DNA from: Diaporthe sp. PMI_573
Lineage: Eukaryota; Ascomycota; Sordariomycetes; Diaporthales; Diaporthaceae
DNA: 64,000 nucleotides
Direction: 5' to 3'
Assembly: GCA_021399435.1 (NCBI GenBank)
Contig: JAJTUP010000026.1
Span: forward strand, 620,001-684,000
The notes under the pieces were generated by a model. The model was given only the letters and a program-made list of their open reading frames with translations. It made no database searches and was not told where the DNA came from. Of this stretch, positions 5,160 to 54,700 are shown one piece after another (the stretch's first letter is position 1; each line of letters opens with the position of its first letter). Both the position numbers and the translations under genes were made by a program.

Positions 5160-6413
5160 ATGAGCGGCCAAAACGCACCGTCAAAGCTTTCACCAGGGCC
5201 AGGTTTTGCCCTCTTGCTGTTTCTCCTCTTCGCCGTCTTGTCATTCGGCGCATCAGCCAGCACGGATTCCGGGGGCAACACAACAAAAGACGGAGAAAAG
5301 AGCGACTTGATCTGCCACACAGAAAATCCAGCCGGATGCTATCCTAGAGTATTCGAGCCAACGGATGAGTTTCAGATAGTGCATGAGGACCAGGAGATAC
5401 CGCCAGGGCTTCATGTCAGGCTAGACGTGAACACAGGGAAGAGGGAAGCAAAGATCAACGACCCGGATGAGGCGAACCCAGCGCTCGAGGGTCTACCGGT
5501 AGATTCGTCAGTGGTGGTTATCGACGGTCAAGAAGACTCCGAGGCGGAAAGCAAACCACAGATCCCAAAGGGCGCTCCCGAGTATGAGTCGGTGGGGAAG
5601 ATCAAGGAGCCCCATGACGCGAAACAGTCTTTCCATGACTCCCTGACGGTGCTCAAGACTCTCGCGCTCGACGACCGGCCGATAGGCGCGGCCCTGGACA
5701 TCCTGGACGACATCTCTCACGACATCTACTACGGCCTGAAGATCGCCGAGGACACCCGCGCGGTCAAGGAGCTGCTGTGTATGATGAGCTCCCAGGGCGT
5801 CTTCTCGAGGGGCGGGGAGGACGACGTGGTTAAGCAGGCAGGTCTGGCGGCCTCCATCGTGGGCTCCGCGCTGCAGAACAACCACAAGGCGCTAGAAGAG
5901 GTCGAGAATGCGTGGGACGAGATCAGCAGGACCAAGTGTGCCGGCACAGACCGGGACCTCAGCAGGGCGGTCTTCAATATGCTGACTCCGGATGTGCCCG
6001 CGGGCGAGGCCGCCAACGGGGCCGAGGCAAGCCTCTTGAGCCTCACAAAGGCCAAGACGGCGGCGCTGAGGGGCTTGATCAAAAGCCCTGTCATCCGCGA
6101 CGACTTCCTCGCGAACGGCGGCATGACGCAGATCCTGGAGGTCCTGGCCATCGAGAAGCCCGAGCTGGCGCCAGCGAGGCAGAAGCTCGCAAATCTCGTG
6201 CTGGACAACTTCCTGGATGAGAGCATGGGCGCCTCCCTCGGTGTCTGGCCCCGACCGGGAGAGGTCGACCACGACTGGGACTACAAGCTCAAGACACTTG
6301 CGAAGCTTCACAAGGCGGACAAGGACCACTGGAGCGCGGAGCTGTGGAAGAGGCTGCAGGAGCAGAGGAAGGCCGAGAGGGCACAAGCTGGGAGCTCGCG
6401 CAGTGAGTTGTAG
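5160..6413 (+). CDS. SIL1: ER nucleotide exchange factor SIL1
   Basis: Uninterrupted 417-residue frame with ATG at 5160. A hydrophobic signal or anchor segment spans about residues 16-36 (FALLLFLLFAVLSFGASAS). After it come ICHTENPAGCYPRVF and the family signature H-E-D-Q-E-I-PPGLHVRLDVNTGKREAKI (about residues 75-100), which is diagnostic for SIL1/SLS1. The C-terminal two thirds is alpha-helical and of the armadillo-like type that clasps the Hsp70 ATPase domain. The protein would release ADP from BiP/Kar2 in the ER lumen during protein import and folding. It ends in RSEL rather than HDEL or KDEL, so luminal retrieval is either by a divergent signal or by another route. The gene shares its promoter region with the complex I subunit gene to its left. 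Confidence 0.92.
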   Translation: MSGQNAPSKLSPGPGFALLLFLLFAVLSFGASASTDSGGNTTKDGEKSDLICHTENPAGCYPRVFEPTDEFQIVHEDQEIPPGLHVRLDVNTGKREAKINDPDEANPALEGLPVDSSVVVIDGQEDSEAESKPQIPKGAPEYESVGKIKEPHDAKQSFHDSLTVLKTLALDDRPIGAALDILDDISHDIYYGLKIAEDTRAVKELLCMMSSQGVFSRGGEDDVVKQAGLAASIVGSALQNNHKALEEVENAWDEISRTKCAGTDRDLSRAVFNMLTPDVPAGEAANGAEASLLSLTKAKTAALRGLIKSPVIRDDFLANGGMTQILEVLAIEKPELAPARQKLANLVLDNFLDESMGASLGVWPRPGEVDHDWDYKLKTLAKLHKADKDHWSAELWKRLQEQRKAERAQAGSSRSEL

Positions 6414-17331: not shown

Positions 17332-18240
17332 ATGTCGTCCTCACTACAGGGCATACAGGTGAGCGCCTTACCCCAGTTGGTGGAGTGACATGATGGAGGC
17401 TCGGGGGTTGAGGACATGAATTCGGCGCATGCGAAAGAAGCACACTGCTGCGTTGGCTTGGGCCCGGCCGGCCATGAGCCATGAGCCATGAGCCATGAGC
17501 CTGAACTTGCGCTGACGCAACGCAGACCGCGATCGAGCGCATAATCCTCGACCCAAAATACCATGACGTCCTCGCCGTGCTCAAGGGCGCCCGCAACGGT
17601 GCCGTGTACGGCACCAAGGTGCGCTTCCCGCACGCCCTGGTCATGATCTGCCTGTTCCGGTCCGGCACGTAAGTTTGTAATCACGACCGACAACACCATC
17701 CTGCCCGCTGACACAATCCCCGAAAGCATCCGCGAGAAGGCCTGGCTCATCTTCCGCGCCACGTGCACGCACGCGCGCAACCTGGCCAAGTTCGCGACAA
17801 TCTACAAGCTGACGTGCCTGATCCTCAAGCACCTGGGCCCGACGCCGGGCAAGGAGGGCGCGCACGACAGCCTGGTGGCGGGGCTGGTGGGCGGGTACAT
17901 GGTCTTCGGGAGGCGGTCGCCGCGGTCGGGCCGCATCTCGAGCGTCAACCAGCAGATCGTCATCTACGTGTTCGCGCGCGTCGTGCTGGCGCTGGCCAAG
18001 CTGTCTGTGCGGGAGGGCTCGCCGTTCGCCCTGCCCGTCGTGTCGCGGGGCAAGGCCGCCGACGCCGTCAGCTACTACGCCTGGCCCGTCTTCGCCAGCG
18101 CCAGCTGGGGCATGGTCATGTGGCTGTTCCGCTGGCACCCCGAAGCCCTGCAGCCCAGCCTGCGGTCTAGTATGACCTACATCTACGCGCAGAGCGACCA
18201 CTGGGACGGGCTGAGGAACTATGTTTGGCATAACAAATAG
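17332..18240 (+). CDS. Peroxisomal membrane protein PMP24/PXMP4 (Tim17-like fold)
   Basis: Three exons (17332-17358, 17526-17668, 17727-18240) give 227 residues. The conserved core is present: KYHDVLAVLKGARNGAVYG, KVRFPHALVMICLFRSGT, REKAWLIFRATCTHARNLA, GPTPGKEGAHDSLVAGLVGG and SVNQQIVIYVFARVVLALAK. These are signatures of the PXMP4/PMP24 family, small four-helix proteins of the peroxisome membrane related to Tim17/22/23. Exon 1 codes only nine residues. Intron 1 (167 nt) contains four copies of CATGAGC (17473-17500). The last exon contains one arm (18027-18088) of a perfect 62-bp inverted repeat whose other arm lies just after the stop codon, so the transcript can fold back on its own coding sequence. 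The gene is convergent with the GT69 gene. Confidence 0.88.
17473..17500. repeat. CATGAGC x4 in PMP24 intron 1
   Basis: Four exact tandem copies of a 7-bp unit close to the 3' end of intron 1, about 25 nt before the acceptor at 17525. Confidence 0.9.
18027..18088 (+). repeat. 62-bp perfect inverted repeat, arm 1 (coding)
   Basis: Lies in the last PMP24 exon, covering roughly the segment that codes FALPVVSRGKAADAVSYYAW and a few more residues. Every base of 18027-18088 is the reverse complement of 18259-18320. Identity stops sharply at both ends. Confidence 0.95.
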
Positions 18241-18585
18241 GTGGGCGTGCGGGCATGTCGGGCCAGGCGTAGTAGCTGACGGCGTCGGCGGCCTTGCCCC
18301 GCGACACGACGGGCAGGGCGTTCTTGTACGGCATTTAGGCGTTTTGGAAGTGCTCATCTCTGGTTTTGGATGGTAGGAAGGGATAGGGGATAGGCGCAGG
18401 TGGGACAAGCACACGTAGAGTACCCCGTCCGACGTTGGGACAGCATATCACAAGACCTGTATAGATGTAGACAGCAAACAGCATGTGGTTCCGAAAACTC
18501 GTGGGCGAGGCTGGATTTTCGGTTTGAAGGTGTTTGTTTGGGTTCATTTCCTATCTTCTCTCGAATTTCTATGTGATGCTTGATT
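18241..18585. other. Convergent 3' flanks of PMP24 and GT69 genes
   Basis: This short gap must hold both 3' UTRs. Its left third is the second arm of the inverted repeat. The remainder shows no gene and is AT-richer near the GT69 stop. Confidence 0.6.
18259..18320 (-). repeat. 62-bp perfect inverted repeat, arm 2 (3' UTR)
   Basis: Begins 19 nt after the PMP24 stop codon and is the exact reverse complement of 18027-18088. The spacer between arms is 170 nt. In the mRNA the two arms would pair into a 62-bp perfect duplex that sequesters the end of the coding region. Confidence 0.95.
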
Positions 18586-19890
18586 TTATAAATGCCGCCA
18601 CCCGTTCATCCACATGATCTGTTTCTCGTTGATCAAGCAGGAAACCCCAGGCTCGCGCCGGGGCTCACCGTCAGGAGCGTCTGCCACCCACTGCCGCAGC
18701 CTCTTGGCGACGGTGGCGCCCTCGACGTGGTGCGAGAGGCGGGCCCTCCATCTCAACCAGCGATTGGCCCAGGCGCCGGCGACGGTCGCCCACGTACCCG
18801 GGAACCGCTCACCGTGCCGCGCGCGGACGACCTCGAAGGCCGGGGCGCTGTAGGCGACGCGCACGTTGGGGTTGAGCCACACGCCGCGGGCGGCCTCGGC
18901 ACTGAGCGGGTTGTCGGCGTGGACGAGGCAGCACTCGCTGCCCTCGAGGTGCAGGTCGGCGAGGGCGTCCGGGATGGCGCGGAAGCGCAGGGGCGGGTCG
19001 GCGCGGAAGGGGGCGGCGTCGAAGATGACCATGCCGTTCCAGCACGAAGCGACGCGCACGGGTTCTGAGCGCAGGGCCGCATCCCGCGCCGCCCCTCCCT
19101 GGAACCACGGCCAGTAGTTGCTGGCCGTCTTGCGGCCCTCGCCGTCGCGCAGCGCGAACGTGTCGTAGTAGGCCGGCGGATGCTTGTAGTCCATGCTGCA
19201 GGCGGCCGCGTAGGCGCCGTCCCGCGTGTGGAGCAGCGTCACAAAGTCCTCGACGTCGAAGATGACGTCGTTGATCCACAGCACCTTGTCGAATGTGACG
19301 CCCCGGCGCTCTTCGGCCTGGGGCATCGGCTCCATGGCGCGGTTGCGCTCGCGGGCGAGGTACGTGATGCGCCGCTTGTCGTAAACCTTGTCCTCCTGGT
19401 TCCAGATCCAGCCCTCCTGGCGCGGGGCGTCCGGGGCGGGGCGCGCCCACATGTCGTCGAGCTGCTGCCAAACCGTCTGCCCGAGCGTGATGGTGTTGGG
19501 GACGTGGCGGTCGTCCAGCTGGGCCTTGAGGGCCGCCAGCTTGTCCTTTGTGTCGTCCTGCGAACCGGACTCGAGGGCGGAGAAGTACACATTGGCGGAG
19601 CCGAGGTAGTCGACGAGGGCGAGGACGGCGGCGCCCCACTCGGGTAGGATCGCGCCGGTGTTGCGATGGACCGAGACTATGAAGAAGGATTGATTGCCGC
19701 CGCTGCCGCCGCCACCGCCGCTGCTGCCCGGAGCGTGGCGCTCGAGGGAGGAGAGAGTCGTTCGGGAGGTGATTGGTCTGTGGCGGAGGAGTAGGATGAC
19801 GTCGATGGCGAAGAAGAACAGCAGCAGGGCGAGTATGGAACGCCTCCTCTGTCGCAGGCGCCGGAGGAGTCGTCGGGAGGAGATGATCAT
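18586..19890 (-). CDS. GT69-family alpha-1,3-mannosyltransferase (CMT1/CAP59 type)
   Basis: Single exon of 434 residues from the ATG at 19890. Frame stays open upstream of it but has no other ATG. A short Arg-rich cytosolic tail (SSRRLLRRLRQRRRS) precedes one membrane anchor (ILALLLFFFAIDVILLL, about residues 18-36), then a Gly/Ser stem: a Golgi type II enzyme. The luminal domain carries the family pattern: SFFIVSVHRNTGAILPEW, ALVDYLGSANVYFSALESGS, RRITYLARERNRAMEP, FDKVLWINDVIFDVEDFVTL with acidic residues fit for metal and sugar-nucleotide binding, ACSMDY, and the C-terminal SCWNGMVIFDA and GSECCLVHAD blocks. Cryptococcal relatives build capsule mannan. In ascomycetes the acceptor is not established, probably cell-wall or secreted glycans. 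Confidence 0.85.
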   Translation of the reverse strand: MIISSRRLLRRLRQRRRSILALLLFFFAIDVILLLRHRPITSRTTLSSLERHAPGSSGGGGGSGGNQSFFIVSVHRNTGAILPEWGAAVLALVDYLGSANVYFSALESGSQDDTKDKLAALKAQLDDRHVPNTITLGQTVWQQLDDMWARPAPDAPRQEGWIWNQEDKVYDKRRITYLARERNRAMEPMPQAEERRGVTFDKVLWINDVIFDVEDFVTLLHTRDGAYAAACSMDYKHPPAYYDTFALRDGEGRKTASNYWPWFQGGAARDAALRSEPVRVASCWNGMVIFDAAPFRADPPLRFRAIPDALADLHLEGSECCLVHADNPLSAEAARGVWLNPNVRVAYSAPAFEVVRARHGERFPGTWATVAGAWANRWLRWRARLSHHVEGATVAKRLRQWVADAPDGEPRREPGVSCLINEKQIMWMNGWRHL

Positions 19891-20713
19891 GGCAGGTGGG
19901 AAGGCGTGGTGGTCATGACTGTCTGCAGGGAGAGTCTTGGCCACGAGAGCTTCCAGAGGCCTCGAGAGGGCTGCTTCATATTTGAGCGAGGTCGTCAGAG
20001 GAGATGGAAGTGAAGGTGCTCAGGCTCCGTCGCAGGGGTGCAGGGGCAGTGCAGTGTGCAGTGCGGCGCACAAGCAAAAGCCAAGGAAGGGGAACCGAAA
20101 GGGAGGCAACGAGGTGAGCTCTGGCACCTGACGGCGGGCGAGATTGTCGCAGGATCACAGCGCTACCCACCGGGTGAGCTCTCCGTCCAGCCCTCCGTGG
20201 GTTGCGCGCATGCGGCCAAGGCTCGTAGCTGCCTGTAGCTGCCTGCAGGCGTGCAGGCGTGCAGGCGTGCGCGAGTGGTCTGGCGCAATCGGGTGGCTCC
20301 TTCCATCACACCTGTTGCAGACCCCTGCTGCCCTGACATGGGACCTCGCCCTTGCACGCCTGGGTGCCCAGAATAAAGGTCGTCTCGCTTGTTGTTGAAC
20401 GAAAGTGACCAGAGAGATCCATATCAAATGAAGTGCGCACATGATGAGCATTGCTGTCTGTTCTAAATCGGTCCCGGTGCAGCGTTCCGCGAGCAACGTG
20501 CTGCACGAATGTGAGACAATGGCGATGGGCACCCTCGAGAGATATGCAGCGGGGCCCGTCTCACAGCGCTTGCGAGCACGAGGACCTGACCTCGTGGTGA
20601 TACAAAAAGACGGCAAAATACCTCGCCTTGACATTGCTTCTGCATGCTCCACCACTCTATCTGCTCTGCCGTAAACGCCCAGAGACTCATCACAGACCCA
20701 GGGAGGACAGGCC
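19891..20713. other. Intergenic between GT69 and aldolase genes
   Basis: Promoter side of the GT69 gene and 3' flank of the aldolase gene. It contains three copies of GCAGGCGT (20245-20268). No coding frame is supported. Confidence 0.55.
20245..20268. repeat. GCAGGCGT x3 tandem repeat
   Basis: Three exact 8-bp copies, preceded by a doubled GTAGCTGCCT. No gene is associated. Confidence 0.85.
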
Positions 20714-51710: not shown

Positions 51711-54700
51711 GCGGTCTCAGAGCCGGAAGGGGGTTCAGACAGGAGTGCGAGAGGTGTCACCCTGCGAGGAGACAGGGTGGAAGACATGGAGCAGAGGAGG
51801 AGGGACTGTCTGTGTCTGGTGAATCAGCCGCATGAGATATAGAATAAGGCCAGCACTCGATCGTCTCTCTGCAGGGTTCACGGTACACGATGGGTCTGTT
51901 GTCTATCGCATTTCAAAAATACTTGTCGCTATCTACGCATGGTCCAGGTTGTCCAATGCGAGGAATAGATGCTGAAGTACGACAGGCAGGACTGGGCTCG
52001 GTAGACTCCACCCTTGCATTCCGTTTCGGGCTAATTGCGGACGGTGCTCAGGACGTCGGTACTATCTCTCTGGGCCATCAACGTAAAAAGGAAACACGGT
52101 AGGGGCCTGAGACAGCACCACGAGCGGGATGGCTCTGGTGCCCCATCTCCAGGCGCTTGTAGATATGTCAGCCCATCCTTTGCCAGGCTCTGTAGAGAGG
52201 ATTTCGCTCGGGTGTCCGCTAAGCGGCTACACCATCTTATGAAGTGGACCACCTGGGCATTTCTCACTGTCCGAACTCCTGTGAGATTACCCAGGTACCA
52301 AATTATCAAGTAACCTCCTAGGGAGTAACCTCCAGTATGATAACCAGGTCTTCGGTGACCAAACCACAAGGGGCTCCGCAATAACACTCTCATGTCGAAT
52401 TTGTGAGAATCTAGCTGTGTTGCTATAATAATGTATGTGACATCTGCTATCCTCACAGAACACGACCGTATAGATATTTAATCAAGGAACGCTTCATTTT
52501 GATCCCCTAATTCATATCGATCCTCACAGGACCCAGGTGAAAAAACTCGAGGGTTTCTTTTTTTCATGTGAAGAAATCCAGACATCACTTGTCGAAGAGA
52601 TGCGACGTTTTTTTTTGTTTTTTGTTTTGTTTTTTTCTATGCCGGAGAGGTATCCTAGTATGAAAGTTAGTGGAAGAACTGGGCGGAAAGCATTGAGATC
52701 TCAAATACCCACCTACCTAGGTTAGGTGTTTTTTGCTGCTGTGGCCCGGTTGATTGGAAGCGTCGATGTAGGATCTCAAGCGCGAGGCTTAGCCCAGCAG
52801 TGCACTTCAGGGACCAGATATTTTCCAAAATAGGGGTATCATTTTCCATTGCTTATTATTTGCTGCTTTTGGTATGAGAGATGTTTTTTAAAAGAAAGAA
52901 AATAGTCAAAGAAATAGCTTAATGTACAGTAGGGCTCTTCAAGTGCTTTACAGTAAATAAAGAATACTAATAGACCCCGTTATTTAGTAAATAGCTATGA
53001 TGAACGGCGAACTCGGCAATCATAGTCATTGACGCTTATATAAGCACCAGCACCAGCTCGGTTAAAGAAGATACTATAAACAATGACATTTTTTACAATG
53101 ATGTAGATTGATCTATTACCATTACAGGTTATAGTTGTCAACCTGGCCTAGGGGGTACGTCAGAGCCCCTGTCACAGTGCTGGGGGATAGGCCATGTTTA
53201 TTAACTTGTTGTTGTGTGGAGGAGAGAAGATAAGAAACTATAAGCTACAGGCAAATCTGTGGCGTTTATATAGTCGGCCGTGATAGGTAGTGGGTGCCGT
53301 GACAGCCCACTAATTTCTATTGCAAGACTGCCAAATACTATTACTATAATGTCGAGGCTGAAGCAATCTGGGTGTTGCGTGTAGGATATGATAGATTGAT
53401 CCAATAGGGTTGACATGGCGAGATGTTTACCGACTGGACGATCATGATCTTGTAGAGCATAGCAATGTGACGTATGGAATTATGGCCAAATGACTGCGCA
53501 GCGTGGATGTATGCCAGACTTACATTGTCTTCTCCGTGGATGTCTCATATTGTGCGGCTTAAAAACCTGTTCATCCCGAAATACCTTATCTAATAGTCGT
53601 GCTTTTCTCCAGAAGACATGCACATGTGTGCATGGCTACAGAGTATCCCAGAAACGGGCAAAAAGAAGAGAGGCACTGCGTTAGATCTACAAGATCTCAC
53701 CCCAACTCTTCACGGGAGACTGATTATCGCAACGGCAGTAGTAGTGAGTGGTAGTGGTTTCTCGGTCGCCCCCCCCCCTCACCCGTGAAGACCGTTGTAG
53801 GTCAAGCCTCACATACAATTTTGGATTCGTTAACTTATCTCATTGCCAAGATCAACTTCGACCACTTTCCCCCATGCGTGGGTTGAGACAGCCACCCACA
53901 ACGACACTGTCGTTGTCAGTCCAAAGTGGTTAGACTTTTGTTGATACGGAAACAGCTTCACTATCAAACATATCTCACAGTACTATTATTGGGCAACGTG
54001 ACGTCCAGAGGTTTCACCTTGTACAGGACATCAATTTAAAAAGGTATGAAAGATATTGGGCTACTCTTCGGAACCGTTGAGAGCTGGGGTGTTCTCTTGT
54101 GACGAGTCACGTTTTACGGTCTCTCAGAGTACATTGGGGCTTCTTACGGCCCTGCGACAGGGCACTACAACAACTTAGACGGGAGATTATGTAAGAGATT
54201 TATGCCAAACACTACTCGTAGGAATATATGCCTCGGACTGACAAGAATCGTAGCCGGTCATGAACGCCTTTAAACACAGGCAAAACGAATCTTTCACATG
54301 CTGTAATTTCTACAAACTGAACATTTACGCTCCAAACAATCACCAGCGTGATGCCTGGTGGACTGATGAAATCATCTGATACAGCTAGCCAAGAATGGAA
54401 GGGAGAGAAGGAAGAGGGGGAGGCAGGCGGCTCACGCAGCCGCCAGGGGAAATTAAACAGCGGTGACCCGGTGTCGGGAAACTTTGTGGCGGCTGTTACT
54501 GGAGCACTGGAAGACACTTGTCTGTGTGGAAACCAAGAGGTCTGCCTTTTTACCGGGCGGACACTAGAAACATGGGGCCGCCATGTGAATCCGATCGAAG
54601 GACGCCAACCTCCGGCAAGATCAGAGTCGAAAACCGGGACAATACTCTCGGAACTCCACGGGCTGGGCACAACACGACTGGCTGATTCTAGGTCGGAATG

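What the first reader, a model, noticed from the sequence alone, without database searches (positions are those of the whole stretch)
18027..18320. Perfect 62-bp inverted repeat joins the PMP24 coding exon to its own 3' UTR
Bases 18259-18320 are the exact reverse complement of 18027-18088, base for base, and identity ends abruptly at both sides. One arm codes protein, the other begins 19 nt after the stop, and the spacer is 170 nt. The mature mRNA could fold into a 62-bp perfect duplex, which might feed Dicer, block the ribosome near the end of the frame, or mask 3' UTR signals. Zero mismatches imply a recent event, active conversion between arms, or an assembly or library foldback artefact. 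No feature type in an ordinary annotation would record this.
Basis: seen in the sequence. Interest (0 to 1): 0.75.

Follow-up and report, generated by a model that had tools for sequence, protein, structure and literature searches.

The report
Template-switch inverted repeat, PMP24 gene end
A Diaporthe-like fungus carries a 62-base piece of a peroxisomal protein gene copied backwards just after that gene's stop codon, most likely a copying slip during DNA replication that happens to give the messenger RNA a very strong hairpin; it is a clear example of a known kind of mutation, with no evidence yet that it does anything.

Summary
The gene is an intact, single-copy fungal PMP24 of a Diaporthe-like ascomycete. 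Arm 1 is coding and is inferred to be the source; arm 2, in the 3' UTR, the copy. Searches of the 83.7-Mb assembly find only these two places, so it is no dispersed repeat. Best reading: one replication template switch wrote 62 nt of exon backwards into the 3' UTR; great-ape template switches reach 128 nt, so it is long but in range. The mRNA would fold strongly (z -12) and the genome encodes Dicer and Argonaute domains, so RNAi processing is possible, but nothing shows it. Zero mismatches bound arm divergence only below about 4.7%, so 'recent' is loosely supported. No sister-species DNA, sequencing reads or small RNAs were available; an assembly fault is unlikely but not excluded. New member of a known kind; modest interest.

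The parts
17332..17358 (+). PMP24 exon 1 (predicted)
   Evidence: with this exon fixed, one tested splice combination gives a complete frame of 227 aa; P0001 and P0002 match over 100% of it
17526..17668 (+). PMP24 exon 2 (predicted)
17727..18240 (+). PMP24 exon 3 coding part, stop TAG at 18238-18240; Tim17/Tim22/Tim23/Pmp24 family (PF02466)
   Evidence: C-terminus RN(F/Y)xWHN(K/Q) in all 16 sequences aligned (15 of the 120 listed relatives plus this one)
18027..18088 (+). arm 1: coding, inferred source, residues 157-178
18089..18258 (+). 170-nt spacer: C-terminal coding sequence, stop, first 18 nt of the 3' UTR
18259..18320 (-). arm 2: exact reverse complement of arm 1 in the 3' UTR, inferred copy
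18586..20019 (-). convergent neighbour open frame (CAP59_mtransfer, PF11735); 345 bp lie between the two stops, so the 3' UTRs may overlap

Best explanation
A single template-switch mutation in DNA replication made this inverted repeat. While the 3' UTR was being copied, the growing strand left its template near 18258, used the coding stretch 18088 down to 18027 as template (its own folded-back nascent strand, or the other strand of the fork), and returned after 62 nt. The coding arm is the source and the 3' UTR arm the copy. The gene product is unchanged. The mRNA gains a 62-bp perfect stem by accident, probably without a selected role. SHOWN: the perfect repeat, its ends, its being found nowhere else in the genome, the intact conserved gene, the predicted fold. 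INFERRED: direction of copying, single event, strand route, lack of function.
For: Perfect 62-bp repeat with abrupt ends; a gapped self-comparison of 17501-18600 gives one long match that ends exactly at the outer ends of the arms (E 3e-28), the rest being 11-40 nt at E 0.098 or worse. Arm 1 encodes residues 157-178 of a protein conserved on either side (15 relatives aligned; P0001 96%, P0002 Diaporthe australafricana 91%), so arm 1 is taken as ancestral. DNA searches of the own genome find the arm at these two places only (the tool scores only best candidates), and half the arm with up to 3 mismatches occurs once forward and once reverse, control 0 and 0. PMP24 is single copy (two exon matches plus arm 2 read on the other strand). 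Of 9 antisense frames found in distant fungi (E up to 1), two (P0125, P0127) span the arm-2 position and one (P0128) part of it; none aligns to the arm-2 segment. Literature: short-range template switching in great apes mostly gives single inverted repeats (types 1-4-3-2 and 3-2-1-4), copied length median 12, maximum 128 in 1503 events (PMC7954356, passages); template switches are also described in yeast coding genes (PMC8604942, passages).
Against: No sister-species DNA, so the 3' UTR before the event was not seen. No convincing junction microhomology: best flanking matches 4 nt (GGCG) and 5 nt (ACGGC) in 30 x 30 nt comparisons, and neither sits at the junction itself; about what chance gives by my estimate, which no call tested. 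Copied length 62 is far above the great-ape median, and the yeast study looked only at spacers up to 70 nt, against 170 here. No second perfect repeat of 19 bp or more in the 170 kb outside the window, so there is no sign of a frequent process.
Confidence: 0.72

Rival explanations
1. Functional cis hairpin: the coding exon and 3' UTR pair in the mature mRNA, making a Dicer substrate or a translation-coupled stability switch that tunes PMP24 mRNA; perfect pairing is kept by selection or by repeated arm-to-arm copying.
For: Fold of 18000-18420: -259.9 kcal/mol against -188.2 (sd 6.0) for 100 shuffles, z -12.0; arms plus spacer -223.6 against -135.2 (sd 4.0) for 50 versions with a shuffled arm 2, arm duplex alone -157.4. 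Genome encodes RNase III domains (13 matches), Dicer_dimer domains (6 matches, five above 70 bits) and Piwi domains (13 matches). Hairpin RNA silences genes through Dicer and Argonaute in Fusarium graminearum (PMC4515635, passages).
Against: The strong fold follows from any perfect inverted repeat and is no evidence of selection. A perfect self-targeting hairpin would be expected to lower its own mRNA. No small RNA, expression or arm-conservation data. No Rfam match in the window.
Confidence: 0.1
2. Assembly or library artefact (fold-back chimera or mis-join) placed a false inverted copy in the 3' UTR.
For: Zero mismatches; no reads were available to check.
Against: Both arms have unique flanks and the copy is a 62-bp stretch inside a 922-kb contig; no N in the 234 kb held. 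A fold-back read artefact usually gives one junction running to a read or contig end, not a short inverted insert with two junctions (recalled). No second perfect repeat of 19 bp or more in the 170 kb sampled outside the window.
Confidence: 0.1
3. Older, shorter imperfect inverted repeat made perfect by later arm-to-arm homogenisation.
For: Template switching between existing near-palindromes is well described (PMC8604942, passages).
Against: Identity ends abruptly and the gapped self-comparison shows no degenerate extension outside the arms; needs a second unproven step.
Confidence: 0.06
4. Mobile element termini or MITE.
For: Inverted repeats are typical of such elements.
Against: Arm found at two places only in the genome and most of the spacer is conserved gene sequence; by contrast the inverted pair at L014:5477-6270 has 83 matches with only 40 of 335 candidates scored.
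Confidence: 0.01

Closest known systems
Short-range template-switch mutations (four-point model), PMC7954356 (passages seen)
   Same: Local reverse-complement copy with perfect arms and abrupt ends; single inverted repeat outcome
   Different: 62 nt against a median of 12 (maximum 128) in great apes; ancestor sequence not available here; source in an exon, copy in the 3' UTR
Template switching that creates or maintains RNA hairpins, PMC8794818 (passages seen)
   Same: A replication error yields a ready-made perfect RNA stem
   Different: That work concerns rRNA hairpins, mostly compensatory changes in existing stems with short loops; here the stem is new, long and in an mRNA, with a 170-nt loop
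Small inverted triplication (SIT), PMC13334657 (abstract and passages seen)
   Same: Short inverted copy ascribed to a replication error, hairpin-forming
   Different: SIT has a duplicated-inverted-duplicated order; no third copy was found here
Inverted-duplication origin of microRNA or hairpin RNA genes (plant model, recalled)
   Same: Inverted copy of a coding stretch forms a perfect hairpin matching its own gene
   Different: In cis within the same mRNA; no small RNA evidence

Membership tests
Short-range template-switch mutation | Perfect reverse-complement copy of nearby sequence with abrupt ends | tested here: met
Short-range template-switch mutation | Copied length within the observed range | tested here: met
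   62 nt; reported maximum 128, median 12 (PMC7954356)
Short-range template-switch mutation | Ancestral state without the copy, all changes explained by one event | tested here: inconclusive
   Only antisense frames of distant fungi: 2 of 9 span the place and 1 in part, none aligns to the copy; no sister DNA
Small inverted triplication | DUP/IN/DUP, three copies | tested here: not met
   Two places only found in the genome
MITE or transposon termini | Dispersed multi-copy element | tested here: not met
Hairpin RNA / milRNA locus | Long stable stem in a transcript | tested here: inconclusive
   Predicted fold z -12.0; that the transcript extends over arm 2 is inferred, no RNA data
Hairpin RNA / milRNA locus | Dicer-dependent small RNAs from the stem | not testable with these tools
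   no read data
Known structured RNA (Rfam) | Match at the gathering score | tested here: not met
   0 matches in 64000 bases
PMP24 / Tim17 family protein (host gene) | PF02466 match over cut-off | tested here: met
   55 bits against 32.7

The most novel reading that the evidence does not exclude
The repeat makes PMP24 mRNA a translation-gated self-silencer: ribosomes crossing the last exon keep arm 1 open, and when translation slows, the coding exon pairs with its 3' UTR and the 62-bp stem is cut by Dicer, giving siRNAs against the gene itself. A single replication slip would have created a complete regulatory switch in one step.
Probability: 0.04. Interest if true: 0.75.

Novelty: new member of a known kind. 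Interest (0 to 1): 0.27.

Why it matters
It is a clean and unusually long example, in a filamentous fungus, of what looks like a replication error turning a coding exon and its own 3' UTR into a perfect hairpin at one stroke. If sister strains differ at this site, it offers a natural experiment on whether a newborn mRNA hairpin is tolerated, silenced by RNAi, or lost. It also predicts a hazard: inversion of the 170-nt spacer between the arms (an outcome known for inverted repeats in yeast, PMC8604942) would destroy the last about 50 residues of PMP24.

Tried and rejected
Transposon or dispersed repeat: rejected by copy number. Small inverted triplication: rejected, no third copy found. A known RNA family: none. 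A larger decayed inverted duplication: the gapped self-comparison gives one long match ending at the outer ends of the arms and otherwise only short matches at E 0.098 or worse. Junction microhomology and flanking direct repeats: matches of 4-5 nt only. Relatives' 3' UTR DNA: no fungal genome collection was on hand and the own-genome tool says it has no relatives, so I searched for antisense frames as a stand-in; this reached only distant fungi. A near/far control of imperfect repeats showed two inverted repeats of score 20 or more within 1 kb in 234 kb (this one, and the multi-copy pair in L014, which is listed in two distance bins) and none in the three farther bins; its direct-repeat rows include self-matches and were not used. 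A solved structure for PMP24: none by sequence at E 0.001. RdRP search (PF05183) did not complete. No structure prediction was run because the protein is intact and not in question. Paper searches seen as listings only: Diaporthe, genome assembly, 83.7 Mb: 0 papers; inverted duplication and microRNA in a fungal context: 33 papers, 10 listed, none used; 10 papers, 8 listed, none on point; Diaporthe, genome size, Dicer, Argonaute: 4 papers, none on point; 52 papers, 8 listed; one, PMC4515635, then read in passages; template switching, inverted repeat, filamentous fungi: 5 papers, none on point by title and start of abstract. One search (66 papers, 15 listed) gave the four template-switch papers read in passages.

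Full report
What is there. Arms 18027-18088 and 18259-18320 are perfect reverse complements of 62 nt, 170 nt apart, and are the only inverted repeat of 25 nt or more reported in the 64-kb window. By base composition the expected number of such pairs within 500 bp is about 7e-30, so it is a copy, not a coincidence.

The gene. With the first exon fixed at 17332-17358, one of the splice combinations tested gives a complete 227-aa frame: exons 17332-17358, 17526-17668, 17727-18240. It matches PF02466 (55 bits, cut-off 32.7) and fungal peroxisomal membrane protein 4 / PMP24. In one search (1356 proteins, best 120 listed) the best named hit is Diaporthe australafricana at 91%, after an unnamed protein (P0001) at 96%; Cytospora and Cryphonectria follow at 78-81%. 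The genome is thus Diaporthe-like; the species is not established. The C-terminus is conserved in all 16 sequences aligned, 15 of the listed relatives plus this one, so the stop is taken as the ancestral one and the protein as intact. PMP24 is single copy in the 83.7-Mb, 217-contig assembly (the third, weak match there is arm 2 read on the other strand).

Direction of copying. Arm 1 touches residues 157-178, with L159, P160, S172 and Y174-V178 invariant in the 16 sequences and variable positions between. Arm 2 lies in untranslated sequence. The simplest inference is that arm 1 is the source. As a stand-in for relatives' DNA I searched for antisense frames covering the gene end. Of 9 found at E up to 1, two (P0125, P0127) cover the place where arm 2 lies and one (P0128) covers part; none aligns to the arm-2 segment. 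These are distant fungi (50-62% identity over the aligned antisense frame), so this is weak support for arm 2 being derived.

Uniqueness. The DNA of the locus finds only itself and the two arms cross-matching (best candidates only are scored). Half the arm with up to three mismatches occurs once forward and once reverse in the genome, control 0 and 0. The one other strong near inverted repeat in the 234 kb surveyed, L014:5477-5708 with 6036-6267 (200 of 232 matching; 28 of the 32 differences C-to-T or G-to-A from first to second arm), belongs to a dispersed repeat (83 matches with 40 of 335 candidates scored). So the PMP24 repeat is of another kind.

Age. With 0 of 62 differences, the 95% upper limit of arm divergence is 4.7%. 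That does not demand a very recent origin, nor conversion between arms; arm 1 is also partly held by protein constraint.

Mechanism. A short-range template switch explains all of it in one event: switch near 18258, reverse copying of 18088 to 18027, return. Because the source lies behind the switch point for a strand growing left to right, the nascent strand itself could serve (intra-strand); the inter-strand route is equally possible. Great-ape data give a copied length of median 12 and maximum 128, with the majority patterns giving single inverted repeats (PMC7954356, passages read). Clear microhomology at the junctions was not found, and the sister sequence needed to place switch points was not available.

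Consequences in RNA. If the 3' UTR includes arm 2, which begins after 18 nt of 3' UTR, the mRNA folds to -259.9 kcal/mol over 421 nt (z -12.0 against 100 shuffles). This follows from the repeat and is not evidence of function. The genome has RNase III, Piwi and Dicer_dimer domains, and hairpin RNA is processed through Dicer and Argonaute in Fusarium graminearum (PMC4515635, passages), so siRNA production is plausible but unshown. The convergent CAP59-like frame ends 345 bp away, so antisense overlap is possible too.

Verdict. Real in the assembly and correctly described; most likely an ordinary though unusually long template-switch product in an ordinary gene. Interest is modest because neither function nor conservation could be shown; an artefact cannot be fully excluded without reads.

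Noticed in passing
own genome G000: C14:132788-136051, C153:402902-406165, C42:65798-69005 (L030, L033, L031): Three Dicer-like gene copies about 99% identical over 3.2 kb, beside a 74-77% relative (C174), a further Dicer-like gene (C134) and fragments on C9 (100%), C172 (99%) and C139 (94%): recent amplification, perhaps as cargo of a mobile element (the cargo idea is untested).
   Followed up: partly
own genome G000: C30, C166, C151, C213, C156, C200, C202 (L041, L042, L037, L039, C156 not fetched, L040, L036): Seven Argonaute (Piwi) loci 85-100% identical to L041 over 2.6-3.8 kb, plus a 1.2-kb part on C212 and shorter fragments on other contigs; a striking expansion of RNAi genes.
   Followed up: partly
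L014:5477-6270: Two inverted copies of a roughly 245-bp dispersed repeat whose copies match the query in both orientations (palindrome-like); differences between the two arms are mainly C-to-T and G-to-A, as repeat-induced point mutation would give.
   Followed up: partly
window 52001-54000: GC falls to 45% against 57.9% for the window; no open frame of 150 aa or more is listed between 51603 and 54212.
   Followed up: no
window 18241-18316: A weak intron-like layout in the 3' UTR: GTGGGC right after the stop, CTGAC at 18276 inside arm 2, AG at 18315-18316 (sequence); splicing there would remove most of arm 2 from the mRNA.
   Followed up: no
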